Assembly: GCA_958296045.1 (NCBI GenBank)
Contig: CATQHT010000003.1
Location: 1,003,246-1,067,245 of the forward strand
Length of the DNA stretch: 64,000 nucleotides
Source: Rhodothermales bacterium
GTDB lineage: Bacteria > Bacteroidota > Rhodothermia > Rhodothermales > Bin80
Reading direction: 5' to 3'
Numbering within the stretch: the first letter of the stretch is position 1; each line of letters starts with the position of its first letter. The position numbers and the translations under genes were made by a program. Below are positions 2,873-64,000 of the stretch, one piece after another. Below the pieces are notes generated by a model. The model did no database searches, was not told where the DNA came from, and saw only the letters and a list, made by a program, of their open reading frames with translations.

Positions 2873-5721
2873 CGGATCTGCCGGGAACCCGGATGGTATG
2901 CGCCACCCACTCGGAGCTGGAGATTTATGTGGTGCGCCACGCGAATGTCAAGGCCTAGCCCAGCGCCCGCGCTGCGGTAAGTCTCCTGTGGCCTATGGCC
3001 AAACAGCGCCTCTGCAAACGCGTAGGCATATAGCACTTTCAGGTACACCGGCACGATCACCAGTCCGTTGTCCGCAAACCACAGAGGCTGTATTGCAAGG
3101 GCATCGACCCCGTAATAGGTGCGGCTTCGGAGCCTTCCGTCTTCGAAGCCGCGCGGCGCGAAGTGGCTTGGACTGTACAGCTGCGCCCGGTTTTGCGCGA
3201 CCAGAGTCGCTTGGATACGCAGCCCGGTGTGGTATTGTTTGGAAAGTGACCAATAGTGTCCCAGCCGCGCGAGCACCGCACGCCGGGGCTGTGCCCGGCC
3301 GTCCCACAGGTCCAGGTCGGACGACACATTCAGCACGCTGCCGCTGTTAGGCATCAGATCGCGCGTATTGCGGCTGATACGATAGCGCAACAGGGCCGCA
3401 GGACCGACCGAATAGCGTCCTTGAAACGTGCGCCAGCTTCGCGGCAGCTGCGGGAGTATAGTCCCTGGCAGCGCAATCAGGCGGTTCTGTGCTAGCGTCT
3501 GCTCAAGCCGCAGGTGCAGTGACGTGCTGCGCACGTTGGATTCCAAGAATACCGGCAGGCTCAGGTTCAGGCGCACCCCCCGCCAAGCCTGTCCCCATAC
3601 GCCAAGGACGGTATCGCTGTGATCACGGTAGAGCACCGAAGCAGCGCGGGCCTTAGAATACAGCTCAATGTCGGTCTGGAGCACATGCACATGCGTAGCC
3701 GCGGCCATAGAGACCCACAGGCGCGCCGCCTGGTAGTGTGCTCCCAGGCTGTAGGTCCATCGGCGAAGCGGGTCTGCCCCCTGGAGCGCCATTCCGGGCC
3801 CAAAGCCCAGCGGTCCGCTCCACACGGTGCCGTCGCCACTGTCGGTCCACGAAGGAAGCAGCGTGCGGGGCGCTAGGTACCTCAACGGACGATAGGGCAC
3901 GGGTGCATCGTGGCTGGCATCTGCCGCTGCAGGCATGAGGGGCGCTGAGGTTTCCTCGCCGGTATGCATCGCGGGCGCCACCGGTCGCGCGAGAGCCAAA
4001 TCAAATGGAATAACTCGAAGCTCATAACGCTCGTGCCCGTATTCCACATAAGCCAGCGTCGATGCGTCCGGCGAAATACTAGGCTCCATCGCGCCAAAGG
4101 GTACATTGGTGAGCTGCACTAGGCCGCTGACCGTAGCGCAGTAGATGTTGGATACTCCTCCCAGGTCCGCGGCAAAGAAAAGGTCCTGTCCATGCCAGAA
4201 GATGTCGTACACCGATGCATCCCGGAAGACGATCCAGGGCTCGAGGTCGGGCGCGCCCTCGCTCGGCCACGACGCCCGCCAAATTCCCTGGCGTCCCCCC
4301 TGCCGAAGGACCAGCGCCACTTCGCGGCCATCAGGGGCAGGCGCTAACTGCACGATGGTGCTACGCGGCCAAGCGGCGACGGGCTCAGCCTCGTCGTCAC
4401 GTAGGCGCACCCAGCGGGTAAACTGTCCCCGGTTCTGTATCGCCCACCGCTCCGTGCCCGCATCCACGGGAAAGAAGACGCGCTTGCCGCGTGTCAGACG
4501 TTCGGCCCTGCCAGATGCCATATCCAGGCGGAATGCATCGGCCACCCACTGCGTTGCTACATGGCGACTGCGAACATAGCGAGAGAAGAGCAGCACGGAC
4601 CCGCCTGAGGCCACAGAATAGGCACCATCCCCGGTCACGGCATGGAATGCCAACGGCCGCATCGCCCTCGTAGTGATGTTAACCACATAGAAGCCGGTGC
4701 GCAGGTTGTATCCAGAGGCATAGACCACCACTGTGCTGTCGGTGAGCCATTGCGGGCGCCTAACACGCCAGCCCTGCTCGGACACGATCGGGCGTCCGCG
4801 GACCAGGTCACCCAGGCGCCCCAGGCGCGTCGATTCCTGCTGTTGCATGGCCTGCCTTACGGCGCGGCCCAGCCTCCACGGACTAGTGCCCGTTCCGTGC
4901 CACAGCTCAAGGCCGGTCCCCAGGAACGGAAACCGGTAATGTAGCGCCCGGACTTTGCGAAAAAACGCTCCGTCATCTGATGCAGCGAGGTGAGCAAACA
5001 GGTTGGCACCACCACTGTAGTGCCGATCGGCGGGATACGTGTACGCGGGTGCTTCGAGCATCTGCGCCAGCGTCCATGGCCTGCCAGAGGCCATAGCCGC
5101 ACGGATCTTCATCTGGAACTGCGCGAAGTTGAGCCGCCCTGCCCCTTCCTCCAGCGAGCTTTCGTAGTAGACGGCCGCGCCTTCTGAAAGCCCGGGGGGC
5201 AGCCCCAGATTAAGGGATCGTGCAAGATCAGGCGACACCCACCGAAGCACAGTTCCTACTCCAAACTCGCCTCCAGCGTCGGCTTGCGCAGCATGCACTA
5301 ATTCATGTGGCGCCACGGCCTGCATCCAGGACGTATAGCGTGCGGAAAGCCGGCTGCCCTGGATGCCCGCCGTCTCTATCTCCTGCCGAAAAGGCAGTGT
5401 GGTCACCAGCCCGTTGCTGCGGTCGTTGTATGCGTTGAGCACCACAGGCATGCGCATCGTGCGGGCATGTCCAGTCAGGGCCTGGGTTCCGGGCAGCTCA
5501 CGTTCGAGGATGGCGGCGGCCGCTCTGGCTTCCGCGTAGGCCCCATCTTCGAAAATGATGCGGAAGTGCTCGCTGCTAAGCACCTGGTAACGGATGCCAG
5601 GCGGCCTGGGGGCAGGCTGGTACAGCCGGGATCGATCGGGGATCTGCGCGGCAGCTGCATGGGGCAGCAACAGCGCAGTAGTGGCCAGGAGTAGGGCCGT
5701 GAAGCAGCTTTGGCGGGCCAT
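2857..5721 (-). CDS. gluzincin-like HExxH protein with PD40 propeller and C-terminal outer-membrane barrel
   Basis: A large secreted protein (954 aa from the ATG used here). Residue numbers below count from an ATG at 5763; I chose 5721 because the earlier one lies only 8 bases from the tRNA-Ser gene and would lengthen the signal peptide pointlessly. Three parts can be read. First, a peptidase-like domain with HELVH at 153-157 and a candidate third zinc ligand in GLSEGAAVYYE (E194), the HExxH-37-E spacing of gluzincins. Second, a WD40/TolB-like propeller from about 300 to 620 with repeated SPDASTLAY-type strands. Third, a beta-rich C-terminal 320 residues resembling Omp85/surface-antigen barrels (GSVLNVSSDLDLWDGR; final Arg after Phe). 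It probably sits in the outer membrane with the protease outside or in the periplasm. Substrate unknown. Confidence 0.8.
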   Translation of the reverse strand: MARQSCFTALLLATTALLLPHAAAAQIPDRSRLYQPAPRPPGIRYQVLSSEHFRIIFEDGAYAEARAAAAILERELPGTQALTGHARTMRMPVVLNAYNDRSNGLVTTLPFRQEIETAGIQGSRLSARYTSWMQAVAPHELVHAAQADAGGEFGVGTVLRWVSPDLARSLNLGLPPGLSEGAAVYYESSLEEGAGRLNFAQFQMKIRAAMASGRPWTLAQMLEAPAYTYPADRHYSGGANLFAHLAASDDGAFFRKVRALHYRFPFLGTGLELWHGTGTSPWRLGRAVRQAMQQQESTRLGRLGDLVRGRPIVSEQGWRVRRPQWLTDSTVVVYASGYNLRTGFYVVNITTRAMRPLAFHAVTGDGAYSVASGGSVLLFSRYVRSRHVATQWVADAFRLDMASGRAERLTRGKRVFFPVDAGTERWAIQNRGQFTRWVRLRDDEAEPVAAWPRSTIVQLAPAPDGREVALVLRQGGRQGIWRASWPSEGAPDLEPWIVFRDASVYDIFWHGQDLFFAADLGGVSNIYCATVSGLVQLTNVPFGAMEPSISPDASTLAYVEYGHERYELRVIPFDLALARPVAPAMHTGEETSAPLMPAAADASHDAPVPYRPLRYLAPRTLLPSWTDSGDGTVWSGPLGFGPGMALQGADPLRRWTYSLGAHYQAARLWVSMAAATHVHVLQTDIELYSKARAASVLYRDHSDTVLGVWGQAWRGVRLNLSLPVFLESNVRSTSLHLRLEQTLAQNRLIALPGTILPQLPRSWRTFQGRYSVGPAALLRYRISRNTRDLMPNSGSVLNVSSDLDLWDGRAQPRRAVLARLGHYWSLSKQYHTGLRIQATLVAQNRAQLYSPSHFAPRGFEDGRLRSRTYYGVDALAIQPLWFADNGLVIVPVYLKVLYAYAFAEALFGHRPQETYRSAGAGLGLDIRVAHHINLQLRVGGAYHPGSRQIRWTFR

Positions 5722-13763: not shown

Positions 13764-15596
13764 GTGATTGCCATGACTGACAAGCTTACCTTGGTCGTAT
13801 CGCAACTTTGGCGCAGGCATGGTTGGTGCCTGATTCTAGCTGGGTTGGCCTGCACACTGTCCGTGCAGACTGCCACGGCACAGCCGGTATCAACCGCGTT
13901 CGACATACTGAAGGCCTTGTACGAGTCTACTGACGGCGACAATTGGACGGACAACACGGGTTGGGATATAACCAGGGTACCAACTGCTGCAGAATTGGAT
14001 ACATGGTATGGAATCGACTACGACGGAGGGACCGAGGCTCTGCGAGGGGTTCTTTTACGTAATAATAACCTTGTAGGTCCGATTCCCAGCGAGTTGGGCA
14101 GCCTTTCCAAACTGGAACTCCTTGACTTATCACGGAATGCTATATCGGGTACGGTGCCCGCCAGCCTGGGCAACCTTTCCAAACTGAGAGGTCTTAACCT
14201 GGGGGGCAATAATCTTTCGGGCACGATTCCCAGCGAGTTGGGAAACCTTGCCAATCTGGAAAGGCTTACCTTACTAGACAATGCTATATCGGGTACGGTG
14301 CCCGCCAAGCTGGGCAATCTATCGAGTCTGATAGTTCTTAGCCTGGGGAGCAATAATCTTTCGGGCAAGATTCCCAGCGAGTTGGGAGACCTCCTGAACC
14401 TCGAGTGGCTCAGCGCAAGCTGGAATGATCTTTCGGGCACGATTCCCAGCGAGTTGGGAAACCTTTCCAAACTCAGAACTCTTGTCCTGGGGAGCAATGA
14501 TCTTTCGGGCACGATTCCCAGCGAGTTGGGAAACCTCCTGAACCTCGAGGATTTCAGCGCAGACTACAATGAGCTTTCGGGCCCGCTTCCCAGCGAGTTG
14601 GGAAACCTTTCCAAACTGGAGTACCTGTACCTTCACAGCAATCAACTCTCGGGTCCATTCCCCGACTGGGTCGGAGCACTTACGTCTCTTCAGGGTCTTC
14701 TCTTGGATGGGAACAATTTCTCAGGTGGAATCCCCAGCAGACTGGGTGATCTGGTGGGTTTGACAAGCCTTCGGCTGAACAAGAATCCCATATCAGGTAC
14801 AGTCCCCGGTGAGCTCGGGAATGCTTCGGCGCTGGAAGTCCTCCGCCTGGACTCCACTTCTCTAAGTGGATCACTGCCGACCACCCTCACGCAGCTAAGC
14901 AACTTATCAACATTCTACTTTGATGGAGCCCACGGCCTTTGTGCACCGGCGGACAGTGCCTTCCAGACGTGGCTGAACAGCATCCCGGATACAAACGGGT
15001 CCACCTGCGCACCTTTGGATCTTACAGGTACCATTGCAAATCAAACCCTTCCCAGAGCACAGCCCATTGCTCCGCTGGTCTTGCCTGAAGCCTCGGGAGG
15101 TGTGCCGCCGATCAATTATACGCTGGCTCCTACACTGCCGACAGGCTTGAGCTTTGACTCGGCAACGCGCACGATCAGTGGTACGCCGACGGAAGTCACG
15201 CAAGCTCCCTTGCCCTATACGTACACGGCGACCGACATGAACGGATCCGCCGACAGTTTGCACTTTACTATTGAGGTGTTTTCACCAGTGGACGCTGAGT
15301 ACGAGACGCTGCCGGAATCGTTTGCCGTGCAAGGCCATTATCCGAATCCCTTCCGTGAATTGACCCGCATCGTGTTCGATCTGCCTTGGCCAGCACGCGT
15401 GACCGTTGAAGTAATGGACGTAACGGGCCGGCGTGTGCTTGCTGTTGCGCCGGTGGATCTGGCCGCTGGATGGGCGCATAACATTGCAGTAAACGGCATT
15501 ACTCTTCCTTCGGGCCTCTACCTGTATCGCCTGATGGCCGTGTCGCCCGAGAGCCACGCAACGTATCTGATGGGCCGCTTCGTGCACGTTCGCTAA
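13764..15596 (+). CDS. secreted leucine-rich-repeat protein with T9SS C-terminal domain
   Basis: 610 aa from GTG at 13764; an ATG at 13773 is an equally good start. A signal peptide ends near VQTATAQ. An LRR cap (FDILKALYESTDGDNWTD) leads into about 14 plant-type repeats of 24 residues (NNLSGTIPSELGNLSKL). Then come a putative-Ig (He_PIG-like) domain (TLPTGLSFDSATRTISGTP) and a T9SS type A sorting domain (ESFAVQGHYPNPFRELTRI ... VMDVTGRRV ... GLYLYRL). The protein should be exported through the outer membrane by T9SS and anchored or released. Several LRR units are nearly identical at DNA level (72-base period). The ligand is unknown. Confidence 0.92.
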   Translation: MIAMTDKLTLVVSQLWRRHGWCLILAGLACTLSVQTATAQPVSTAFDILKALYESTDGDNWTDNTGWDITRVPTAAELDTWYGIDYDGGTEALRGVLLRNNNLVGPIPSELGSLSKLELLDLSRNAISGTVPASLGNLSKLRGLNLGGNNLSGTIPSELGNLANLERLTLLDNAISGTVPAKLGNLSSLIVLSLGSNNLSGKIPSELGDLLNLEWLSASWNDLSGTIPSELGNLSKLRTLVLGSNDLSGTIPSELGNLLNLEDFSADYNELSGPLPSELGNLSKLEYLYLHSNQLSGPFPDWVGALTSLQGLLLDGNNFSGGIPSRLGDLVGLTSLRLNKNPISGTVPGELGNASALEVLRLDSTSLSGSLPTTLTQLSNLSTFYFDGAHGLCAPADSAFQTWLNSIPDTNGSTCAPLDLTGTIANQTLPRAQPIAPLVLPEASGGVPPINYTLAPTLPTGLSFDSATRTISGTPTEVTQAPLPYTYTATDMNGSADSLHFTIEVFSPVDAEYETLPESFAVQGHYPNPFRELTRIVFDLPWPARVTVEVMDVTGRRVLAVAPVDLAAGWAHNIAVNGITLPSGLYLYRLMAVSPESHATYLMGRFVHVR

Positions 15597-34670: not shown

Positions 34671-35672
34671 ATGGCGAAGCTGGCAGCCTGGAGCATAGTC
34701 AAGCAGCATGGCAAGGGTGGCTCACAGCAGTCGGAACCACGGAGAGTCAGGCGCTCCAGCATCGGCCTGGAAAGATATCTCGAAGACTGGATTGTAAAAG
34801 ACGTGACGCTAATCGGGGAGGGATTCACCTTGGTCGGCCGCCAAGTCTTGATAGATGACGGACGGCTCGATCTGTTAGCTGTTGACTCGCGGGATCGCTG
34901 GGTGGTGATTGAGATCAAGCCTGCGAGACTCGATTCTGGCGCGCTGGCACAGGCGCTCTACTATGCCTCTTCACTTGCCCGACTCGACGCAGATGAACTC
35001 TACGTAAAGCTTGAGCCCAACTTTGGCGAGTTCGGTGATGTAGAAACGCTGTCGACGAGAGTGAAGCAGCTACTGGATAGTGAAGGGATGGAGCGCGAGA
35101 TCGCCCTGCTTCTCGTTGGCACCGGAACCCACTCCGGGTTGGAGCGAATGATCGAGTTTCTCGGGCGCTTCGACGTCCCAATCAGTGTCGTCAGTTTCGA
35201 GGTGTTCGAGCTGGAGGGTGGTCCGAAGTTGTTGATTCGTGAAGTCATCGACGAACTGACCAAGCGACCCCCTTCACATCGCCGGCTCAGTCTTGAGGCT
35301 ATTCGTGGCTTAGCCATTGAAATGGGCGTAGTCAAGCAGTTCGATCGTTTTGTGGACATGTCCAAGGAGGCAGGTCTTGCGGTCCAGGCCCAACGGGCAT
35401 CTGTGAGAATTGCGCCACCGGACGACCGCAGGAGGTTCCTCATGTGGATGCAACCACGGGCTGGCCGCAACGGGGGCGAATTGGGTATTTGGGTAGGCCC
35501 AAAGCAGTTCGCAGAGTTCTTTCCTGAGGTAAACGAAAAGGAGGCCATCGACGCGATTGGTAAGTACGAAGATGGTGCGTTCTTCGCTGGCGAGGCCCTT
35601 GAGGAGCGGCTCAATGAGATCGAACGATTTCTAACCGACAAGATCCAACAGGCAGAATCCAGGGACCTCTGA
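34671..35672 (+). CDS. NucS/DUF91-type PD-(D/E)XK nuclease-domain protein
   Basis: 333 aa with a good ribosome-binding site (GAGGGGAG) 6-7 bases before the ATG. The N-terminal domain has the nuclease core GRLDLLAVDSRDRWVVIEIK: D67, E81 and K83 fit the D-ExK active site, and the following SGALAQALYYAS is the helix typical of NucS-like DUF91 proteins. The C-terminal two-thirds (LLVGTGTHSGLERMIEFLGR, FEVFELEGGPKLLI, PQPRAG-like strand, FFPEVNEKEA) is not recognised. NucS acts on mismatched or branched DNA in archaea and actinobacteria; similar standalone proteins also occur in defence contexts. Here the neighbours are a dead transporter and an intron fragment, so the role is open. Confidence 0.8.
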   Translation: MAKLAAWSIVKQHGKGGSQQSEPRRVRRSSIGLERYLEDWIVKDVTLIGEGFTLVGRQVLIDDGRLDLLAVDSRDRWVVIEIKPARLDSGALAQALYYASSLARLDADELYVKLEPNFGEFGDVETLSTRVKQLLDSEGMEREIALLLVGTGTHSGLERMIEFLGRFDVPISVVSFEVFELEGGPKLLIREVIDELTKRPPSHRRLSLEAIRGLAIEMGVVKQFDRFVDMSKEAGLAVQAQRASVRIAPPDDRRRFLMWMQPRAGRNGGELGIWVGPKQFAEFFPEVNEKEAIDAIGKYEDGAFFAGEALEERLNEIERFLTDKIQQAESRDL

Positions 35673-35698
35673 TGAATCGAGGCCGTCAAATCGCGATA

Positions 35699-35956
35699 TA
35701 ACGCACACGGCTCCTCCCGCAGGTCGCGCTGTCGCGCATGACGTTAGGAAGTGGGGATACCCACCACCTCCAGCCGTAAGCGGTACACCTGCGCCCCGAC
35801 TGTGGCTCTGAGTCCACAGCCATTTGGACAGATTCACAAAATCCGACCCAGAGTCCGGCATGAATCCGGCTTCTCGCTTTCCCCTTGGGTGCGACCCTTG
35901 GCTCCACCGGCTCCGCCCCGTGGTCATCCACGCGTTGTTCGCCGGCTTCGTAGCTA
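35699..35956 (-). repeat. group II intron 3'-region fragment, copy 1 of a 255-bp repeat
   Basis: About 258 bases that are nearly identical to 63395-63649. On the minus strand both copies run toward the domain V start GAGCCGTGTGCG. In this copy similarity stops just after GAGCCGTGTGCGTTA, where the nuclease-gene 3' flank begins, so domain V is cut in half and the copy is dead. The short frames seen here on both strands are intron RNA, not protein. Confidence 0.75.
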
Positions 35957-36523
35957 CTATGGTTACATCTGACTTCTCTCCACCGTACATCCTCCGATCA
36001 GCATTTGGCCTACGCTTTGGTGACCCTCCCCGAAGGGATAGGTAATGGAGAGACCTCCCAGGTCCTGATGCAGTACGTACGTGCGTGCCTGGGTTCTTGG
36101 ACACCGCGGGACCCTCCTCCGCCTCACCATTAACGGCAAAGAAGGTGTTGCCTTCGACCAAGATCAAAGCCTCGGCATCCCGGACAATAGCATTTTCGGT
36201 GCTCATTAGCCCTGCCCACCCGCACCTCTACCGACGCTTCGCCTGCACCCTCGCGGGTACCAACGCACGGCTCGAGGAGATGCGTGAATGGTTAGTCCTT
36301 CACATCGGGAGACTTTCACTCCCTGTACTGGCACCAAGTAGCCTAGCGCACGACCTAACCCGCTTTTTGGGCCGTCCCATGACGCTGGTCCTGATGGCTG
36401 CCACCGTGGCCACCATCGTACTGGGACTGCGGATTCGACGCCGTCGGCGCGGTCTAGGATGGCCGCCTACTACTGGTTGAGACACGATTTATATGGCTGG
36501 GTTAGGTAGTTTGCCTTTTCCGC
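35957..36523. other. region with unassigned short frames
   Basis: A plus-strand frame 36085-36480 ends in one membrane-like helix plus basic tail (LVLMAATVATIVLGLRIRRR), origin unknown. On the minus strand a frame from ATG 36206 contains ALILVEGNTFFAVNG and GTHVRTASG...LHYLSL, which faintly recall DUF427 proteins (VEGNxYFP, THTxxxxKGxASYY). If real it is a remnant. I would not annotate either as a gene. Confidence 0.35.
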
Positions 36524-36544
36524 GTGTATACAATCTGCGGCTCC

Positions 36545-37120
36545 ATGGAATCTCTGACGACAAAGCGGTTCAGCAACTGGAGCAGAAGACTGCGACAGTC
36601 GGACAGGGCGGCTTACACGGAGCTGTATAATGCGACACATGCCGTTTTGTATCGGTATGCCTCATATATAACCCGGAACCGTGATGATGCGTATGACGTG
36701 CTTCATGACGTGTACATGAAGTTGTGGACCATTCGTGGGACGCTGAACCCTGATCTGTCGCTGAAGGCGCTGCTGTACCTGATGGTGCGAAACCGGGCAC
36801 TTAACCGCATTAGCAGTACGTCGCGAACCCGAGAGGTGGCGATGTCGGAGACGGACGAAACGCAATCGCCAAATGCGGCGGCCGACCTCGAGCTCGGGGC
36901 GAAGCTGCTGAAGCGGAAGATACGCAGCTGGGTCATGGAGCTGCCTGAACGTCGGCGCGAAGCGTTTATGCTCAGTCGGTATGAGGGACTCAACCATCGC
37001 GAGATTGCCAAGGTAATGGGGCTGGCGCCGAAGACGGTCAACAACCATATTGTCGCAGCACTCGCGCACCTGAGGCAGCGGTTAGAGGACTATAATCGGG
37101 GGGATTCTGGTCAGTTATGA
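36545..37120 (+). CDS. ECF RNA polymerase sigma factor (FecI-like)
   Basis: 191 aa from the ATG at 36545 (MESLTTKRFSNWSR); an ATG at 36524 is possible. Region 2 reads YTELYNATHAVLYRYASYIT ... DDAYDVLHDVYMKLW and region 4 reads ELPERRREAFMLSRYEGLNH then REIAKVMGLAPKTVNNHIV. This is the Bacteroidota-type ECF sigma that pairs with a FecR anti-sigma. The stop overlaps the next gene's start (ATGA), so the two are translationally coupled. Expected role: switch on the receptor gene downstream when its ligand is sensed. Confidence 0.94.
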   Translation: MESLTTKRFSNWSRRLRQSDRAAYTELYNATHAVLYRYASYITRNRDDAYDVLHDVYMKLWTIRGTLNPDLSLKALLYLMVRNRALNRISSTSRTREVAMSETDETQSPNAAADLELGAKLLKRKIRSWVMELPERRREAFMLSRYEGLNHREIAKVMGLAPKTVNNHIVAALAHLRQRLEDYNRGDSGQL

Positions 37121-38007
37121 TTACCGATCACTGTTTACCTGAGGAGATTCAGCCTGACGGGGCGGCTGGCATTTCCAGACCGGAGCTGGCGTCGGCATGG
37201 GCATCTGTGGCTGGCGCTAGCCCCCTTGCGGCGATATCTGGCCCCGACCCGGGACGAGTTCTGGCCATCGGCCAAATGCTGACGGCCCATGCGTTACCGT
37301 CTCGAAGAATGCGCTTGGTCACGATTCGTCGTCTTTCCATCGCCGCAGGCATCGCGCTGTTGGTAGCGACTGGCGCCATCCTGTGGTCCCAACCCGTTCA
37401 TACGGTAGCTGACGCGGCGCTTGATGTGGCATTGCCAGACGGCTCCACCGCCTCGCTGGAGCCCGGATCCGAGCTTGCGTACCACCGCAGTCTTGGGCGA
37501 TTCACGCGCCACGTGGCACTACAGGGCGCCGCCTTTTTTGATGTGCAACCCGGCGAGTCACCGTTTGTCATTCAGACTGCAGACCTGCGCGTCACGGTGC
37601 TGGGCACTCGGTTCAGCGTTGACGTGACCGGTGATGAGGCCGTCGTCTATGTGACCGAAGGGTCTGTTGAGGTCGCCGCCCACGGACAGGTACGTCGTCT
37701 GACGGCGGACCAAGGTCTTCGCGCGGATAGGCAGAGCGGTACGCTTACCGCGGTAGTCCAGAATAAGGATGCCACTCCCGACCTGTTTGTCCAGATCAAG
37801 CAGCCGTTGGGCGTCATGTTTGACGAGGTGGAGCAAATTTTTGAGGTTGAGGTTATTGCAGACGACCGCATCCGCCGCCATGTTCACAACTTCAAGCATG
37901 AAATTTCTACGGTGGACGCTCTGATCAGTGACCTATGCCGGAGCGTCACCTCTATGAACCTCCGGTATCGCCTGACTGCCACGGGCTTCGAGATTCTCGA
38001 CCAGTAG
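37117..38007 (+). CDS. FecR-family anti-sigma factor
   Basis: 296 aa. A cytoplasmic N-terminal part is followed by one membrane helix (RLSIAAGIALLVATGAILW), then the periplasmic FecR domain (LDVALPDGSTASLEPGSELA, FDVQPGESPFVIQTADLRVT, VLGTRFSVDV, VYVTEGSVEVAAHGQ). A DUF4974-like end (GVMFDEVEQIFEVEVIADDR) follows. It overlaps the sigma gene by 4 bases and precedes the receptor by 8 bases: a complete sigma/anti-sigma/receptor operon. It should relay receptor occupancy across the inner membrane. The stop is TAG. Confidence 0.93.
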   Translation: MITDHCLPEEIQPDGAAGISRPELASAWASVAGASPLAAISGPDPGRVLAIGQMLTAHALPSRRMRLVTIRRLSIAAGIALLVATGAILWSQPVHTVADAALDVALPDGSTASLEPGSELAYHRSLGRFTRHVALQGAAFFDVQPGESPFVIQTADLRVTVLGTRFSVDVTGDEAVVYVTEGSVEVAAHGQVRRLTADQGLRADRQSGTLTAVVQNKDATPDLFVQIKQPLGVMFDEVEQIFEVEVIADDRIRRHVHNFKHEISTVDALISDLCRSVTSMNLRYRLTATGFEILDQ

Positions 38008-38015
38008 CCGCCACC

Positions 38016-40928
38016 ATGGGTACAATGCAGCCCTGCGTGCGCGGCATGCTGGCAGCCGCGTGCTGCGCCTGCCTTTTCGTCCTGCCAGCACGCGCCCAGC
38101 AATCGTACAACGTCGTTCTGCAGGGTGTGACGCTGGAAGAGGCGCTGGTGGAGCTGATGACCCAAACCGACCTCGTTCTGGGGTTCGATCAGCGCCTGGT
38201 CGCAGGTAAGTGGACGAACTGTGTCATCTCGGACGCTTCTGGCGAAGAGCTTCTTCAGTGTGTCCTCAAGGGCACGGGCCTCGAATATTTTCGGTTAGCT
38301 TCGGGATTGTATGTCCTGACTGAGCCTGCCGAGGTGCGCATCCGCCATGGCGCATTGCACGGCATCGTGGTAGACCGTGACACGGGCGAACCGTTAGAGC
38401 ATGCCCATGTCATGCTGAATCCGCAGCGCGTCACCATCTCCAATCAGGACGGGCGGTTCATCTTCAGCGACCTGATGCCAGGGCTGTATGCGGTCACTAC
38501 CACGTATGTCGGCTACTCGGCGCAGCTGAACTATATCCGCGTCACGGCCGACAGTGTAGCCCGAACCCGTATGGCACTTCGCCAAGAGGCCATCGTCGAG
38601 CGGACACCGGTGGTAATCAGCGGCACGGGGTGGCGTGTCCCATCCGATACGCTTGGGCGGCAAGCCCTTGTTAACGACGCCCTCCGCCAGGAAGCTGGCG
38701 GCCTTGTGTCGGATGTGGGGCGTGCCTTTGCTTCGATGGTCGGGGTACGCCTAAACGACGCTACCGCGGACCTGCATATCCAGAGCAGTGGCGCTGGCGA
38801 GCATCAGTACCGTATTGATGATGCGCCCGTATTCGTTCCGGTGAGTATCGGCGGACTGGTCGGCCCATTCAGCACGTACGCACTCAGCCGGATCACGGTA
38901 CACAAAACGGGTTTCGGCGCGGATGTGGGCAGCCAGACGGCCGGTGTGGTGGAAGCTGTCCACGCGTTGGGCAAGCGCCCTGGTAGGCACCTCGATGTGC
39001 ATGTGGACCCGATGAGCGTCAACGCGCGCGCCAGCCACGCACTCGAGGACGGGTCAGCCATTATGGCCGCCGGACGTCTGGGACTATGGCAGCTGTATGC
39101 ACCGCCTGCGGTACACGGCATGCTGCAGCGATGGAATCAGACCGATCAATTCATGTACTCCGCCTTTCGCGCGGTGCCTGACCCTTCACAGTCCAACTCG
39201 TCGTTCTTCAGTCAAAGCGGACATGCTCCCGCGCCCAGCCTGCAGTTTTCAGATGCACATTTTGCGCTGAGGAAGCGCAACGGCATCCTGAGCAGCATCA
39301 ATGCCTCTGCGTACTGGGGGCGACGGCAGCTGGACAGCGAGGAGGGATTCGGAGAACATCCTGTGGTGGTAGGCTATCCGGCACTATTGAAAGCGGCACC
39401 GGGCGTACAGGACCGGTACGTATGGAATAACGTGACGGGCCAGATCCGATACGAATCCGTGCTGGGGTCACGCATGATGGCGTCAGTGCAGGCGCGTGCC
39501 AGTCTGTTCAGCCTTCAGCATGACATCACCACGGCTCGGGCCATTCAGCGGGCTGCAGCGATGAGCAGTGCGTTGGCGGAGCGCGTGGATCTGAGAGACG
39601 ACAACGGCAACAGGGTGCGTGAATATGGTCTGGCTGGGCGGATCTCTATGGCCGTCTGGAAGGGCTGGCACGTGGATGCCGGATTGGAGCCCGCCTATAC
39701 GCACAGCCGTTTTCTGGTGCATGGAACGCGAACGGCTCCCATTGTCCACGCCTCAGGCGTCTGGCGCGTAGAGAGCTTTATTCAGAACCGTATCCCTGTC
39801 AGTGCACAGTTGACCGTAGACGCCGGGACACGAGTCACGTACCTTGCGTCACGCAAATCCTGGTTTGCAGAGCCACGTCTGGCGGTCCGTTACGATGCGC
39901 GATCAAGCGACGTAGGCCCGTGGTCTGCGCGGCTTGCTGCGGGACTGTACCGTCAGTACGTCACCCAATATGACGTTACAAGCCGCAGCGCGCGTGCCCT
40001 CCGATCGTCCAGCCGCATGTGGATGGCCCCAGACCATTCCGTGGCTCCGCCCAAGGCGGCGCATCTAAGCCTCGAGGCAACGGTCGCCCCTTCAGATTCG
40101 TGGACGCTTCGCGCAGGAGGGTACCTCAAGCAGCTTATGCACCTGTTGTCGATCAATTATGTGGCACCGGCTCCCGGTAGCGTATCCACAACCGCGTTAC
40201 TTGGCGGGCAAGACCTGTCCGCTTTTCTTGAGGACGGCTTCTCGCTGCCTAGTCAGACGCAGTCTTCATTTCTTAGCTCGGGCACTGGTTATGCTTACGG
40301 GTTCAGCCTGTACACCAGCCGGCATCTGGCCCGCTTGCGGCTGCAGGCCGGATACGAGTTCAGTCATACGTCCCGCAGCTTCGGATCCCACTTCGAAGGG
40401 CGCACTGTGGTGGCACCATGGAACGAGCCACATCGACTGGAGCTGGAGGCCGACTTCGATGCGATGCCAAACCTAGTGCTACAGGCTCGTTGGCAGAGCA
40501 TCTGGGGGCGTGCCTGGGGCTTTCGGCAGTCCTATTATGATTTCCTGGGAGCATATGGCCAAAGGCTTTTTGAGCTTCTGGAGACACCCCGGAGCGACGT
40601 GAACGACGACGGTTATGATGTGCTCAGCATCCCTGTCGTGGTGGAGCATATCCGCGCCTACCGGCTGGAGCATCCCGAAGAACACCGTCTCCCGGCGCTG
40701 CATCAGCTTGATGTCAGCGTAGCCTATACACGAAACGTCAAGGCTATGCGCGTGCAAGTTCGTGCGGACGCCATCAACGCCTTGGGCACCAGAAACGTGG
40801 TAGACTGGGGCTTGGTCCAGGGCGAAGAAGAAAGCGAGGAGGATAGGCCCGAGGGCGGTCTGCTTGAAATCCAGGAGCGTCACATGCTTCCGGTGACGCC
40901 ATCGTTGGCATTCCGCCTTATCTGGTAA
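38016..40928 (+). CDS. TonB-dependent receptor with STN signalling domain (FecA-like)
   Basis: Start at ATG 38016, 8 bases after the fecR stop; it opens a signal peptide (MLAAACCACLFVLPARAQ). The secretin/TonB N-terminal domain (VTLEEALVELMTQTDLVLGF ... ASGLYVL) is the part that signals to FecR. It is followed by a CarboxypepD_reg-like domain (LHGIVVDRDTGEPLEHAHVM), a plug and a long barrel ending SLAFRLIW. About 970 aa. The plug is atypical at RYRIDDA-like HQYRIDDAPVFVPVSI, which is still plug-like. Ligand unknown; iron-siderophore or a glycan are both possible. Confidence 0.92.
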   Translation: MGTMQPCVRGMLAAACCACLFVLPARAQQSYNVVLQGVTLEEALVELMTQTDLVLGFDQRLVAGKWTNCVISDASGEELLQCVLKGTGLEYFRLASGLYVLTEPAEVRIRHGALHGIVVDRDTGEPLEHAHVMLNPQRVTISNQDGRFIFSDLMPGLYAVTTTYVGYSAQLNYIRVTADSVARTRMALRQEAIVERTPVVISGTGWRVPSDTLGRQALVNDALRQEAGGLVSDVGRAFASMVGVRLNDATADLHIQSSGAGEHQYRIDDAPVFVPVSIGGLVGPFSTYALSRITVHKTGFGADVGSQTAGVVEAVHALGKRPGRHLDVHVDPMSVNARASHALEDGSAIMAAGRLGLWQLYAPPAVHGMLQRWNQTDQFMYSAFRAVPDPSQSNSSFFSQSGHAPAPSLQFSDAHFALRKRNGILSSINASAYWGRRQLDSEEGFGEHPVVVGYPALLKAAPGVQDRYVWNNVTGQIRYESVLGSRMMASVQARASLFSLQHDITTARAIQRAAAMSSALAERVDLRDDNGNRVREYGLAGRISMAVWKGWHVDAGLEPAYTHSRFLVHGTRTAPIVHASGVWRVESFIQNRIPVSAQLTVDAGTRVTYLASRKSWFAEPRLAVRYDARSSDVGPWSARLAAGLYRQYVTQYDVTSRSARALRSSSRMWMAPDHSVAPPKAAHLSLEATVAPSDSWTLRAGGYLKQLMHLLSINYVAPAPGSVSTTALLGGQDLSAFLEDGFSLPSQTQSSFLSSGTGYAYGFSLYTSRHLARLRLQAGYEFSHTSRSFGSHFEGRTVVAPWNEPHRLELEADFDAMPNLVLQARWQSIWGRAWGFRQSYYDFLGAYGQRLFELLETPRSDVNDDGYDVLSIPVVVEHIRAYRLEHPEEHRLPALHQLDVSVAYTRNVKAMRVQVRADAINALGTRNVVDWGLVQGEEESEEDRPEGGLLEIQERHMLPVTPSLAFRLIW

Positions 40929-61370: not shown

Positions 61371-61410
61371 ATCGCGGTTGCCCCAGGGTTTCCCCTGGGG
61401 CCCCGCACAG
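61371..61410 (-). ncRNA. outer group II intron: end of domain V and domain VI
   Basis: On the minus strand the C at 61410 completes the outer domain V. Then TGTGCGG is followed by a domain VI hairpin GCCCCAGGG-GAAA-CCCTGGGGC, unpaired AA (candidate branch point) and CCGC, pairing with GCGG. The intron would end at CGAT (61371), an AY end seven bases after the branch A. The last splice position is inference. Confidence 0.65.
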
Positions 61411-61495
61411 GTAGGGTCGGGGTCTGGCGCGCCAATCCACAGGACTCAGTCGGTAACCGCCTTGTCCTGGAATCACGTTTCCAGACCCCGCCACA

Positions 61496-62866
61496 TCAAA
61501 CCACGGCGTGCGGTTTTCCCGCACCGGGCTTTCCTGCTGGATACGCCGTAAAGTTTATACGCAGTTGGCGTGGGCGTGCTTTCGGCTTGTAATACGATAT
61601 GTGCCACTGGTCGTACAGTCCCAGTCGCTCGTAGAACATGCGCCTATTCCACCGTTTCCAACCATAGCCCCGGCGTCCTCGGGCTCGCATCAGATGGCGC
61701 CTGATCTTCAGTTCTACCCAATTGCGGATGTAACGAAAGCATCGGCTGGATTGCCCTATCCGAAAATAGTTCAACCATCCCCGTAAAATCGGGTTGATAC
61801 GTTCAATTACACGTGTGACCGGCTGTGAGCGAAAACGTCGGAATACCTCCTTGAGCCGCCGTAGCAGCTTCGTGCGCGCCTTCATACGGGGCACCGTCAG
61901 GGCGCCCCAGCGCCCCCGCTTCGTCCTGTACCGACGAATGCGGAACCCAAGAAACGTGAAACTCGCCCCTTCGGTCAGGTCAACCCTCCGCGTCTTCTCT
62001 ACATTGAGCGAAACGTCAAGCTTAGCCAACTCCTCCAGCAAACGCCGGTAAATCCCCCGCTCCAGCCAGCCCCATTTGGGGTAGCCATCCACCACTATCA
62101 CCAGGTCGTCAGCAAAGCGGGCGTACTCCATATGGAAGTACCCCCTCTCGCGGGTGACCGCCTTCGCACGCTCCAGCATACGATCCACCTCATTGAGGTA
62201 GATGTTGCTCAGAAGCGGCGAGATGACGCCCCCTTGAGGCACGCCTTTGTTGCCACCAGACTTCAGTATCCGCTTTAGTAGCCACAGAATCGCGTTGTCC
62301 TTAACACGGACAGCCACTTTCCAGAGTAGAATATGGTGACGTATCGTATCGAAGTACGACGCCAGATCCACATCTATTACCCGGGTCATTCCTTTGACCA
62401 CCGCCGAGGTTACACGGTGTACGGCAGCATGAGGCGTGCGCTTCGGTCGGTACCCATAGGATCCGTCCTGAAAGTCGGCCTCAAAGATCGGCTCCAGAAT
62501 CAGCTTCAACGCTCCCTGTACCACGCGATCACGTATCGTCGGAATACCCAGCGTGCGGAACTTGCCGCCGCCTTTAGGTATCCGCTTCTTACGCAATCCC
62601 GATGGTCGGTAGCGGTATAAGACAAGATCGCGCCGTATATCGTCCAGAAACGCCTCCAATCCCGACTCCTCTATGGCTTCAAACGTCATTGCGTCAATGC
62701 CCGGGGCACCGCCGTTTCGTTTTGCCATTCGGTACGCCTCCTGGAGCGTTTCCATCTTACATACATGCACGTACATGCCCCAAAAACGCCATTCCGGCTC
62801 TGCCTTGGCTTTACGGTATATTCTCCTCCTCAGGTCCTGCAGGCTTATAGTTGCGGCCTTCTTCAT
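61496..62866 (-). CDS. ltrA: group II intron reverse transcriptase/maturase
   Basis: 456 aa. RT blocks are visible: GGAPGIDAMTFEAIEESGLE, RRIPKGG-like KKRIPKGGGKFRTLGIPTIR, QDGSYGYRPKRTPHAAVHRV, VIDVDLASYFDTI, GNKGVPQGGVISPLLSNIYL and the catalytic YARFADDLVIVV (FADD, residues 251-254). The maturase X domain follows (INPILRGWLNYFRIGQSSRC). There is no HNH endonuclease. The TGA stop (61496-61498) lies at the edge of domain V, so the protein frame runs through the catalytic RNA domain, as often seen in bacterial introns. The frame is intact. Confidence 0.95.
   Translation of the reverse strand: MKKAATISLQDLRRRIYRKAKAEPEWRFWGMYVHVCKMETLQEAYRMAKRNGGAPGIDAMTFEAIEESGLEAFLDDIRRDLVLYRYRPSGLRKKRIPKGGGKFRTLGIPTIRDRVVQGALKLILEPIFEADFQDGSYGYRPKRTPHAAVHRVTSAVVKGMTRVIDVDLASYFDTIRHHILLWKVAVRVKDNAILWLLKRILKSGGNKGVPQGGVISPLLSNIYLNEVDRMLERAKAVTRERGYFHMEYARFADDLVIVVDGYPKWGWLERGIYRRLLEELAKLDVSLNVEKTRRVDLTEGASFTFLGFRIRRYRTKRGRWGALTVPRMKARTKLLRRLKEVFRRFRSQPVTRVIERINPILRGWLNYFRIGQSSRCFRYIRNWVELKIRRHLMRARGRRGYGWKRWNRRMFYERLGLYDQWHISYYKPKARPRQLRINFTAYPAGKPGAGKPHAVV
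61498..61531 (-). ncRNA. inner group II intron domain V
   Basis: Minus strand AAGCCCGGTGCGG, GAAAA loop, CCGCAC, GC bulge, then CGTGGTTT. Stem pairs GTGCGG/CCGCAC above a 2-nt bulge and AAGCCCG/CGTGGTTT below, with one extra bulged U. The AGC catalytic triad lies at the base of the 5' strand. It agrees with group II domain V apart from the bulged U. Confidence 0.75.
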
Positions 62867-63378
62867 GTCTTCAGTGCCTCCCCGTTATTGTCGGAAAACA
62901 TACCAGCAGCGAGGCGCCTTCGCTCCACGGGCATTACCCCGCTTCAGCGCTACTACGCACCTCTCCGCCACCCTCTCACCTTCGGTACACTTCCCGGTGC
63001 CACCGGTTATAGTACCTACCTTTCTCCGACGATTTCTCGTCGGGGCGAGGAGGGCTTCTCCAGTTGCTTTGCATGTCCTTGTGATCGTGCCGTCGCTACC
63101 ACCCCGCCGAAGTGGAACAGTCGTTTCAATCAGATTTCGACCGCCCATGCTGCCTTCGTCCCACGGATGAGGACTCGGCCTTCGGGATACACTGACGAGG
63201 CCACCTGTGCGTTCACTTGCGTTACGGCCCGAACACTCGCAACCTCCCCAAGGGAGGCCTTGTCGGTAGGCTTCATGAATTAAGTTTCCCGCTTCCATGC
63301 TACCCGAGCTACAGAGCTCTGATTTCTACTCTGGCAGGACTGACTCCTGCCGAACATGCCAGCCTATGCTGGACACAC

Positions 63379-63409
63379 ATCCGTGCGTGCGCGTTAACGC
63401 ACACGGCTC
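63379..63409 (-). ncRNA. outer group II intron domain V, 5' 31 of 32 bases
   Basis: Minus strand GAGCCGTGTGCG, TTAA(CG) loop, CGCACGCACGGAT. With the C at 61410 it folds as a standard domain V: lower stem GAGCCGTGT/GCACGGATC, a two-base AC bulge, upper stem GCG/CGC, and the AGC triad at bases 2-4. The inner intron splits it one base before its end. Confidence 0.8.
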
Positions 63410-63649
63410 CTCCCGCAGGTCGCGCTCCCGCGCATGACGTTAGGAAGTGGGGAAACCCCACCTCCAGCCGTAAGCGGTTCACCTGCGCCCCGACTGTGGC
63501 TCTGAGTCCACAGCTCTTGGACAGATTCACAAAATCCGGCCCAGTGTCCGGCATGAATCCGGCTTCCCGCTTTCCCCTTGGGTGCGACCCTTGGCTCCAC
63601 CGGCTCCGCCCCGTGGTCATCCACGCGTTGTTCGCTGGCTTCGTAGCTA
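63395..63649 (-). repeat. outer group II intron 3' region, copy 2 of a 255-bp repeat
   Basis: Near-identical to 35699-35956 over about 255 bases. On the minus strand it leads into the outer domain V at 63409. The intron's 5' part and any protein gene are missing: beyond 63649 the sequence changes to the upstream region of another insertion sequence. Short frames here (for example PRGKREAGFMPDTG) are intron RNA. Confidence 0.75.
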
Positions 63650-63891
63650 GTGCTTGTCCGAAAAACAGGGCCTGCCTTGCGTAGATGGCTACATGGGGGT
63701 CAGCAGGGGGAGAGGTACGCCAGAAATAGGCGTTTTTGCGGGCTAATGGTCGGTCTAACTCACTCTGGACCCATTGTGGACCCATTCCTGCCAAGAGCTT
63801 GAATCCGCGAATGTTGGCTCAGATTTAGCTTTTCTCAGCGTAAAGCACGATATTGAGCTCTGAACCCGCCTACATTCGCCCGAGTCATACA

Positions 63892-64000
63892 CATGAGAGC
63901 GGTCATTAAGTCCCAGTCGGATCTGGGGGTCACGCCGATTGAGCAGATTGAGCTGAACCCCAAGTCAAGGGACGATACCCCCGCGGTGTTGCGCGGCCTG
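63892..64000 (+). CDS. transposase N-terminus (ISNCY-like), runs off window
   Basis: 36 codons from ATG 63892: MRAVIKSQSDLGVTPIEQIE then LNPKSRDDTPAVLRGL. The segment L-x-x-K-S-R-D-D-x-P-x-x-L-R-G-L is the standard beginning of a widespread ISNCY-type transposase. The rest lies beyond base 64000. Bases 63650-63891 upstream hold its left end, which probably truncated the outer intron fragment. Confidence 0.75.

What the first reader, a model, noticed from the sequence alone, without database searches (positions are those of the whole stretch)
35699..35956. Second copy of the outer intron's 3' region, cut in domain V
A 255-bp near-identical repeat occurs 28 kb apart. Copy 1 ends inside domain V, right after the NucS-like gene; copy 2 holds the nested intron. 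So the outer intron family has been active or duplicated in this genome, and only 3' pieces survive here. Both break near domain V, though copy 1 by truncation and copy 2 by insertion.
Basis: partly seen in the sequence, partly recalled or inferred. Interest (0 to 1): 0.5.

Follow-up and report, generated by a model that had tools for sequence, protein, structure and literature searches.

The report
Broken copy of a multiplied intron
The repeat is the tail of a small self-splicing intron that has copied itself dozens of times in this bacterial genome; this copy has lost part of its catalytic core, while its twin in the window has been invaded, at the edge of the same core, by a second intron from a lineage that repeatedly picks that spot.

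Summary
The repeat is real: 258 bp, about 95% identical, 27.7 kb apart. It is the 3' part of a 705-nt ORF-less group II intron ("A", minus strand). The genome holds at least 40 matches; 16 full-length copies without an insert were read. Copy 1 starts with an intact GTGCG at 36351 and carries D1-D4 (RF02005). It has probably lost 47 nt internally (3' strand of D5 plus nearly all of D6), keeping the last 9 nt, so it should not splice. It lies antisense in a small frame after the NucS-like gene. Copy 2 has a complete D5; an RT-bearing intron ("C", 1968 nt) sits exactly between its D5 and D6, and an IS-like insert bounds its other end. C's EBS1 (ATCCGTG) pairs 7/7 with the 3' strand of A's D5. Close relatives of C sit in the same junction of other introns in an archaeal MAG contig and in proteobacterial genomes; several more distant ones do not. 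Copy 1 is an ordinary decayed element, but it leads to an apparently undescribed lineage of group II introns homing to domain V of other group II introns.

The parts
35690..36351 (-). Copy 1 of the ORF-less group II intron A (705 nt when intact), 662 nt, with a probable 47-nt internal deletion
   Evidence: 5' end GTGCG at 36351 aligned with intact copies; A 1-649 matched, 94%
36092..36316 (-). D1-D4 of copy 1 (Rfam RF02005, 167.1 bits, full model)
   Evidence: again in L059
35699..35956 (-). The repeat given: A positions about 396-649, ending after the 5' strand and loop of D5
35699..35713 (-). 5' strand and loop of domain V; its 3' strand (the site intron C recognises) is missing here
   Evidence: sequence; no RF00029 match in L059
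35690..35698 (-). TATCGCGAT, probable last 9 nt of intron A (TACCGCGAT), left after the deletion
   Evidence: 8 of 9 match to the terminus of intact copies; inference
34671..35672 (+). NucS_C-domain gene; its stop ends 17 nt before the probable intron remnant
   Evidence: sequence
35672..36480 (+). Small frame (48 or 51 codons once the antisense intron is taken out) split by copy 1; whether it is a gene is not shown
   Evidence: joined flanks read in frame; no uninterrupted relative found
63379..63649 (-). Copy 2: intron A positions 396-665 with complete D5
63379..63385 (-). IBS1 CACGGAT = end of the 3' strand of A's domain V, target of intron C
61411..63378 (-). Inner group II intron C (1968 nt, GTGTG...CCCTAC) inserted in the D5/D6 junction of copy 2
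   Evidence: RF02003 at 63217-63352
63162..63168 (-). EBS1 of intron C, ATCCGTG, in a predicted hairpin loop
   Evidence: the hairpin's fold score is weak, z -0.95
61496..62866 (-). Reverse transcriptase/maturase of intron C (456 aa, RVT_1 + GIIM)
61371..61410 (-). D6 and 3' end of the outer intron A of copy 2 (A 666-705)
63650..64000 (-). Start of an IS-like insertion (terminal inverted repeats GTGCTTGTC.GAAAA, TAGCTA repeated on both sides) that interrupts copy 2; continues beyond the window
   Evidence: 470-aa ORF without a Pfam family at E <= 0.001

Best explanation
The two copies are members of one ORF-less group II intron family (A). Copy 1 inserted antisense into a small frame after the NucS-like gene (shown by anatomy), then most likely lost 47 nt covering the 3' strand of domain V and nearly all of domain VI (inferred from the junction). 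Without these it should neither splice nor move. Copy 2 kept domain V, and intron C reverse-spliced into the junction right after it. C's EBS1 base-pairs with the 3' strand of domain V (pairing shown; reverse splicing inferred), and C's own RT would then copy it in. A has no RT of its own; the RT of family B, whose intron resembles A at both ends, probably moves A in trans (inferred). The close relatives of C form a domain-V-homing line: members in other genomes sit in the same junction of other introns.
For: Intron identity: RF02005 at 167.1 bits in copy 1; RF00029 ends at the 3' end of an intact A, 40.0 bits, E 1.4e-4, and is absent from copy 1; GTGCG start and AT end in the full-length copies; D6 folds with a bulged A 8 nt from the end. 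Exact excision of A leaves a frame open over 600 nt at 6 of 12 sites, against 1 of 12 when the cut is shifted by 1 nt and 1 of 12 by 2 nt. Homing of C: EBS1 pairs 7/7 with A's D5 strand. In the own genome 6 of 8 C elements with a readable 3' junction are followed by D6 of A or D. Same junction in L080, L081 (3' side only), L087 and genome G208. In L080 Rfam D5 models lie on the host's D5 (2473-2512) right at the insertion, with a host D1-D4 upstream; in L147 a host D1-D4 (RF02005) lies upstream. EBS1 at one alignment column tracks the 5' exon in nine cases, 56 of 63 Watson-Crick pairs against a shuffled mean of 32.7 (14 of 20,000 shuffles as good). J5/6 members cluster on the RT tree (2 changes against 7.1 shuffled, 0 of 500). 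A resembles B over the first 302 nt (86-89%) and at the 3' end (83%).
Against: The base after copy 1's remnant is T, where 31 of 32 A copies with a complete 3' end have G, so a plain 3' truncation is possible. No uninterrupted relative of the copy 1 site was found. No good EBS1 for A emerged (best mean 0.73 pairing), so its mobility by base pairing is not shown. Two of 8 own C elements (L032, L047) are not followed by D6. Of 14 loci from other genomes whose flanks I printed (of 53), 3 are in J5/6; L082 and L085 lie in gene-like sequence at D5-like heptamers; nine others are elsewhere or unreadable. Three more distant relatives in the alignment (L088, L095, L096) show no pairing at the EBS1 column and were left out of the nine. 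L087 pairs only 5 of 7 there and has a 7/7 match at another place (position 440). That C is absent from D5 of B and E (0 of 20 sites, against 3 of 38 in A and D) is not significant (p 0.54). L080 is a 7.8-kb contig of a MAG, so its archaeal origin may be a binning error. RNA, splicing and movement were not observed.
Confidence: 0.88

Rival explanations
1. Copy 1 is a simple 3' truncation: the intron ends at 35699 and the following 9 nt are exon.
For: The base after the 9 nt is T, not the G found in 31 of 32 A copies with a complete 3' end. The downstream small frame stays open with or without the 9 nt.
Against: The 9 nt at the break match the intron's last 9 nt at 8 positions; about 1 in 10,000 by chance (28/4^9, own arithmetic).
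Confidence: 0.15
2. The two copies are a segmental duplication of one locus, not independent intron insertions.
For: Same orientation, high identity.
Against: Homology stops at the intron's ends, flanks differ, and at least 40 matches exist in the genome.
Confidence: 0.02
3. C is a class C (IIC) intron that takes D5 simply as a terminator-like hairpin, so the site is structural, not a D5-specific homing site.
For: The nearest solved RTs are 7uim and GsI-IIC 6ar1 (class label recalled). D5 is a hairpin just upstream. C's absence from the D5 hairpins of B and E is not significant.
Against: A 7-nt EBS1 pairs with the hairpin's own 3' strand, and the heptamer varies with the target in nine cases. 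L084 and L086 use AGTCAGT sites that are not D5.
Confidence: 0.2
4. Circularly permuted group II intron: D5/D6 upstream of D1-D4 is a functional arrangement at copy 2.
For: In copy 2 a D5 lies just upstream of a D1-D4 match; such introns exist in bacteria (PMC8637638, title and start of abstract seen in listings).
Against: C carries its own D5- and D6-like 3' end and A's D6 follows it. Copies without C have an uninterrupted D5-D6.
Confidence: 0.02

Closest known systems
Thermosynechococcus elongatus group II introns TeI3/TeI4 (PMC2882425, passages read)
   Same: Many copies in one bacterial genome, ORF-less introns beside RT-bearing relatives, trans mobilisation, introns inserted at fixed sites in other introns (twintrons)
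   Different: There the inner introns sit in domain IV between two start codons. Here C sits between D5 and D6, there are five families A-E, and nests reach at least four levels.
Nested introns of Methanosarcina acetivorans (known through PMC4424553 and PMC2882425, passages read; original not read)
   Same: Repeated site-specific homing of introns into other introns, up to five introns nested
   Different: A domain V target and a lineage keeping it across species are not mentioned in the passages read.
Euglena chloroplast psbF twintron (PMC8393795, passage read)
   Different: One organellar case in the passage; no RT-bearing lineage with an EBS1 complementary to D5 in several species is mentioned.
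Trichodesmium Tr.e.I7/I8 twintron (PMC4649490, passages read)
   Same: Bacterial group II intron nested in another, spliced in order
   Different: Inner intron lies in domain I.

Membership tests
Group II intron (element A, intact copies) | 5' end GUGYG | tested here: met
   GTGCG or GTGTG at the 5' ends of full-length copies; copy 1 GTGCG at 36351
Group II intron (element A, intact copies) | D1-D4 structure | tested here: met
   RF02005: 167.7 bits in intact L063, 167.1 in copy 1, model 1-225 of 225
Group II intron (element A, intact copies) | Domain V hairpin followed by domain VI | tested here: met
   RF00029 1-77 of 77 at the last 73 nt of intact L063, 40.0 bits, just at its gathering score of 40, E 1.4e-4; not listed by the faster window scan for copy 2. 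The D5 hairpin alone folds weakly (z -1.8).
Group II intron (element A, intact copies) | Domain VI with bulged A, 3' end AY | tested here: met
   D6 z -5.9, bulged A 8 nt from the end, ends AT
Splicing-competent group II intron (copy 1) | Complete D5 and D6 | tested here: not met
   3' strand of D5 and all but the last 9 nt of D6 absent; no RF00029 match in L059 up to E 1
Autonomous mobile group II intron (element A) | RT in domain IV | tested here: not met
   A is 705 nt; the RT matches examined fall in B, C, D
Mobile group II intron (element C) | RT and maturase domains | tested here: met
   RVT_1 2.3e-29, GIIM 7e-17
Mobile group II intron (element C) | EBS1-IBS1 pairing with the 5' exon | tested here: met
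   7 of 7 at copy 2; tracks the 5' exon in nine cases, three more distant relatives without it
Class C (IIC) intron (element C) | Insertion after terminator-like stems with a short IBS1 | tested here: inconclusive
   D5 stem is upstream, but IBS1 is inside the stem and L084/L086 sites differ; no class tree with named references was built
Twintron | Complete intron inside another whose removal restores the outer one | tested here: met
   A...GAT|C|CTGTG... equals the uninterrupted A at J5/6; met for the J5/6 region only, since copy 2's outer intron also carries an IS-like insert
Twintron | Sequential splicing observed | not testable with these tools
   needs RNA

The most novel reading that the evidence does not exclude
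There is a lineage of group II introns (element C and its close relatives), perhaps spanning bacteria and archaea, that are hyperparasites of other group II introns: their EBS1 is the complement of the conserved 3' strand of domain V (CACGG[A/T]T), so their homing site is the catalytic core that host introns cannot easily change. They spread wherever other introns spread and must splice out first for the host to work. Loss of that strand, as in copy 1, also removes the target.
Probability: 0.6. Interest if true: 0.7.

Novelty: new variant of a known kind. Interest (0 to 1): 0.52.

Why it matters
Twintrons are called rare in bacteria (PMC4649490, abstract), and the bacterial cases in the passages I read have the inner intron in domain IV or domain I. 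A lineage that reads domain V itself would have a target found in many group II introns and held back from change, because the ribozyme needs it. It offers a natural test of intron-on-intron parasitism and of ordered splicing. The same genome shows at least four-level nesting with five families, a living case of intron proliferation. It also illustrates why an intron pipeline missed outer introns of twintrons (limitation stated in PMC8919778, passages read).

Tried and rejected
Protein-coding origin of the repeat: rejected. RF02005 covers the adjoining part, RF00029 the 3' end of an intact copy. A-like sequence occurs in 8 of 15 other genomes of the same family and in 0 of 43 of the same order outside it (at most nine candidates were scored per genome, so the zeros are not exhaustive).

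Segmental duplication and a circularly permuted intron: rejected (see rivals).

IMG/VR scan for relatives of C's RT: 2 pattern matches, none confirmed.

Empty-site check for copy 1: of 38 other genomes only G003 had a NucS-like match, and I saw no such small frame behind it; undecided.

EBS1 of A: scanned over 14 distinct 5' exons, no convincing site.

C's RT in 58 relatives at E <= 1e-100: none, so C is probably a recent arrival by transfer; not proved.

L082 was first taken for a D5/D6 case; reading its upstream sequence showed an oxidoreductase-like frame (by eye), so it is counted as an ectopic site; its 3' flank stays unexplained.

C sparing the D5 of B and E was first written up as avoidance; 0 of 20 against 3 of 38 is not significant, so it is no longer used as an argument. 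The motif filter let 8 of its 36 'A' rows through that are not D5; I count 28.

Rows dropped before counts: L037 and one L045 piece (3' ends short of position 705) in the +1 base count; L038, L062, L065, L075 in the excision test (they lie in other introns or in tandem); L088, L095, L096 in the EBS1 count.

Literature: seven searches listed no paper that I could recognise, from titles, abstract starts and the passages read, as describing a prokaryotic lineage homing to domain V. Most subscription papers are not held, and the original M. acetivorans paper was not read.

Full report
1. Observation. The two stretches 35699-35956 and 63395-63649 match in three blocks with small indels, about 95% overall. 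The coordinates are exact. Searching the window's own genome (G000, 4.78 Mb, 4 contigs) gives 40 matches to the 258 bases (40 of 68 candidates scored) and 47 to the 544 bases next to copy 1 (40 of 84 scored). Both are lower bounds.

2. What the repeat is. Copies in the same genome continue past both edges of the repeat. Read on the minus strand, intact copies run 705 nt from GTGCGCCAGG... to ...GGGGCTACCGCGAT. In 49 stretches taken around hits, 16 full-length copies have no insert, with 14 distinct 5' flanks. The 5' part is Rfam RF02005, group II D1-D4, 167 bits. The last 73 nt of an intact copy match RF00029, the D5-D6 model, at 40.0 bits, just its gathering score (E 1.4e-4). Domain VI has a bulged A 8 nt from the end. 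A is too short for an RT. When A is removed exactly, 6 of 12 sites show a frame open across 600 nt (five in the sense of the intron); with the cut shifted by one base 1 of 12 does, by two bases 1 of 12 (four sites in other introns or in tandem were left out). A therefore often sits inside frames, and its ends are right.

3. Copy 1. Its 5' end is at 36351 and D1-D4 at 36092-36316. The repeat ends after the loop of D5; no RF00029 match is left (L059). The next 9 bases, TATCGCGAT, match the last 9 of the intron at 8 positions, so the simplest history is a 47-nt deletion (A 650-696) that removed the 3' strand of D5 and nearly all of D6. The first base beyond is T, where 31 of 32 A copies with a complete 3' end have G, so truncation is not excluded. 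Copy 1 lies antisense in a small frame whose ATG overlaps the stop of the NucS_C-domain gene. It cannot splice from that gene's transcript and has lost half of its catalytic hairpin.

4. Copy 2. D5 is complete. After ...CACGGAT comes GTGTGTCC..., the start of intron C (1968 nt, RT of 456 aa with RVT_1 and GIIM), which ends ...CCCTAC, followed by A's own D6, CTGTGCGGGG.... The insertion is thus between D5 and D6. The other edge of copy 2 (63649) is an IS-like element with inverted ends and a repeated TAGCTA; its 470-aa frame has no Pfam family. Further up lies a second insert with a DDE transposase and a piece that starts like B and continues like A.

5. Five families and their nests. Besides A and C there are B (1926 nt, RT), D (1898 nt, RT) and E (680 nt, ORF-less, D-like). 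A resembles B (86-89% over 302 nt at the 5' end; 83% at the 3' end) and E resembles D (about 72% and 83%), so each ORF-less family has an RT-bearing relative. Recurrent positions are B in A at 388, B in D at 163, D in B at 1326, E in B at 1714, A and B in E, and C in the D5/D6 junction of A and D. Locus L075 reads D > B > E > (B and A), four levels. Matches to A-E cover about 84.8 kb, 1.8% of the genome, in the places looked at.

6. How C finds its site. Aligning C with relatives placed a heptamer at one column in a predicted loop; in C it is ATCCGTG and pairs 7/7 with CACGGAT of A's D5. Over nine pairs (C, L080, L082, L084, L085, L086, L087, L102, G208) 56 of 63 positions are Watson-Crick; shuffling partners gives a mean of 32.7, with 14 of 20,000 as good. 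Three cautions: the column was chosen because C pairs there; several of the nine share a motif; and three more distant relatives in the alignment (L088, L095, L096) show no pairing at it and were left out. L087 pairs 5 of 7 there and has a 7/7 match at another place. Against D's D5 C pairs 6 of 7, against B's 5 and E's 4 Watson-Crick of 7. In the fetched stretches, by exact motif, C follows 2 of 28 A, 1 of 10 D, 0 of 14 B and 0 of 6 E D5 hairpins (recounted); the difference is not significant (p 0.54).

7. Relatives. Of 53 loci found with C's RT I printed the flanks of 14. L080 (Candidatus Syntrophoarchaeum MAG) and L087 (Proteobacteria MAG) have D5 upstream and D6 downstream; L081 (Thiorhodococcus) has a D6 downstream, its 5' side is lost. 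In L080 Rfam puts a host D1-D4 at 1954-2072 and D5 models at 2473-2512 and 2474-2531, both a little below their gathering scores, right at the insertion at 2509. L080 and L087 are contigs of about 8 kb from MAGs, so their species names are uncertain. L082 and L085 lie in gene-like sequence at D5-like heptamers. L083, L084, L086, L088, L089, L095, L096, L102 and L104 lie elsewhere or could not be read. A search of 146 genomes of L081's family added G208 with seven copies at E <= 1e-90 (11 of its 36 candidates scored); four show D5 upstream and a D6-like stem downstream, the other three one side only, which agrees, by eye. One of them, L147, has a host D1-D4 (RF02005) upstream. In the own genome 6 of 8 C elements with a readable 3' junction are followed by D6 of A or D; L032 and L047 are not. 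On an RT tree of 26 rows the J5/6 rows need 2 changes against 7.1 by shuffling (0 of 500); near-copies from G208 help this figure. The eight J5/6 rows lie in one group of 11 that also holds L082, L083 and L085, joined at 87/97, which is below the tool's mark for firm support.

8. Relatives of A. A-like sequence was found in 8 of 15 other genomes of the same family and none of 43 from the rest of the order, with at most nine candidates scored per genome. C's RT is in none of the 58 at E <= 1e-100. This fits long residence of A and later arrival of C.

9. Known and new. Multiplied ORF-less introns, trans mobilisation and twintrons are known from T. elongatus (PMC2882425), deep nests from Methanosarcina (reviewed in PMC4424553), and one insertion in domain V from Euglena psbF (PMC8393795). 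I read passages of these, not the whole texts. What I did not find in seven literature searches (listings, abstract starts and some passages) is a prokaryotic lineage whose homing site is domain V of other group II introns. The library lacks most subscription papers. Shown here: positions, boundaries and pairing. Inferred: reverse splicing, the order of splicing, and B's RT acting on A.

Copy numbers are now given as lower bounds; the remaining length of copy 1 (662 nt), the A positions of the repeat (396-649) and the distance to the NucS stop (17 nt) were corrected; the claim that C avoids B and E was withdrawn; the three non-pairing relatives and the five further loci without a D5 (L088, L089, L095, L096, L104) are now told. 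The odds of the novel reading went from 0.65 to 0.6 and of the class C rival from 0.15 to 0.2 for these reasons.

Noticed in passing
L075 (G000 C3:2358230-2365664): Four-level nest of group II introns: D > B > E > (B and A), about 7.4 kb.
   Followed up: partly
L038 (G000 C1:543740-547435): Three-level nest D > C > A; A is inserted at position 62 of C, which itself sits in D's D5/D6 junction.
   Followed up: yes
L049 (G000 C3:339990-343787): Two D introns head to tail with no spacer, inside B, inside A.
   Followed up: no
L047 (G000 C2:764505-768944): Rearranged A and C pieces, including the 3' end of C joined to A position 489.
   Followed up: partly
window 14064-14711: Tandem repeats of 72/144 nt, five copies of 61-100% identity, not examined.
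   Followed up: no
window 36524-40928: Sigma-70 factor, FecR-domain protein and a large CarboxypepD_reg-domain protein in a row, an operon-like signalling set.
   Followed up: no
G208 (L147-L153): Seven copies of the C lineage in one genome of the family of Thiorhodococcus, in what look like at least two kinds of host intron.
   Followed up: partly
L085 and L082: C-lineage introns in gene-like sequence at heptamers resembling the D5 strand, which look like ectopic insertions.
   Followed up: partly
L080 (JAOQII010000056.1): This 7.8-kb MAG contig carries further group II intron matches (RF02001 at 633-824, RF01998 at 986-1066, RF00029 at 5092-5161) around the nested pair.
   Followed up: no
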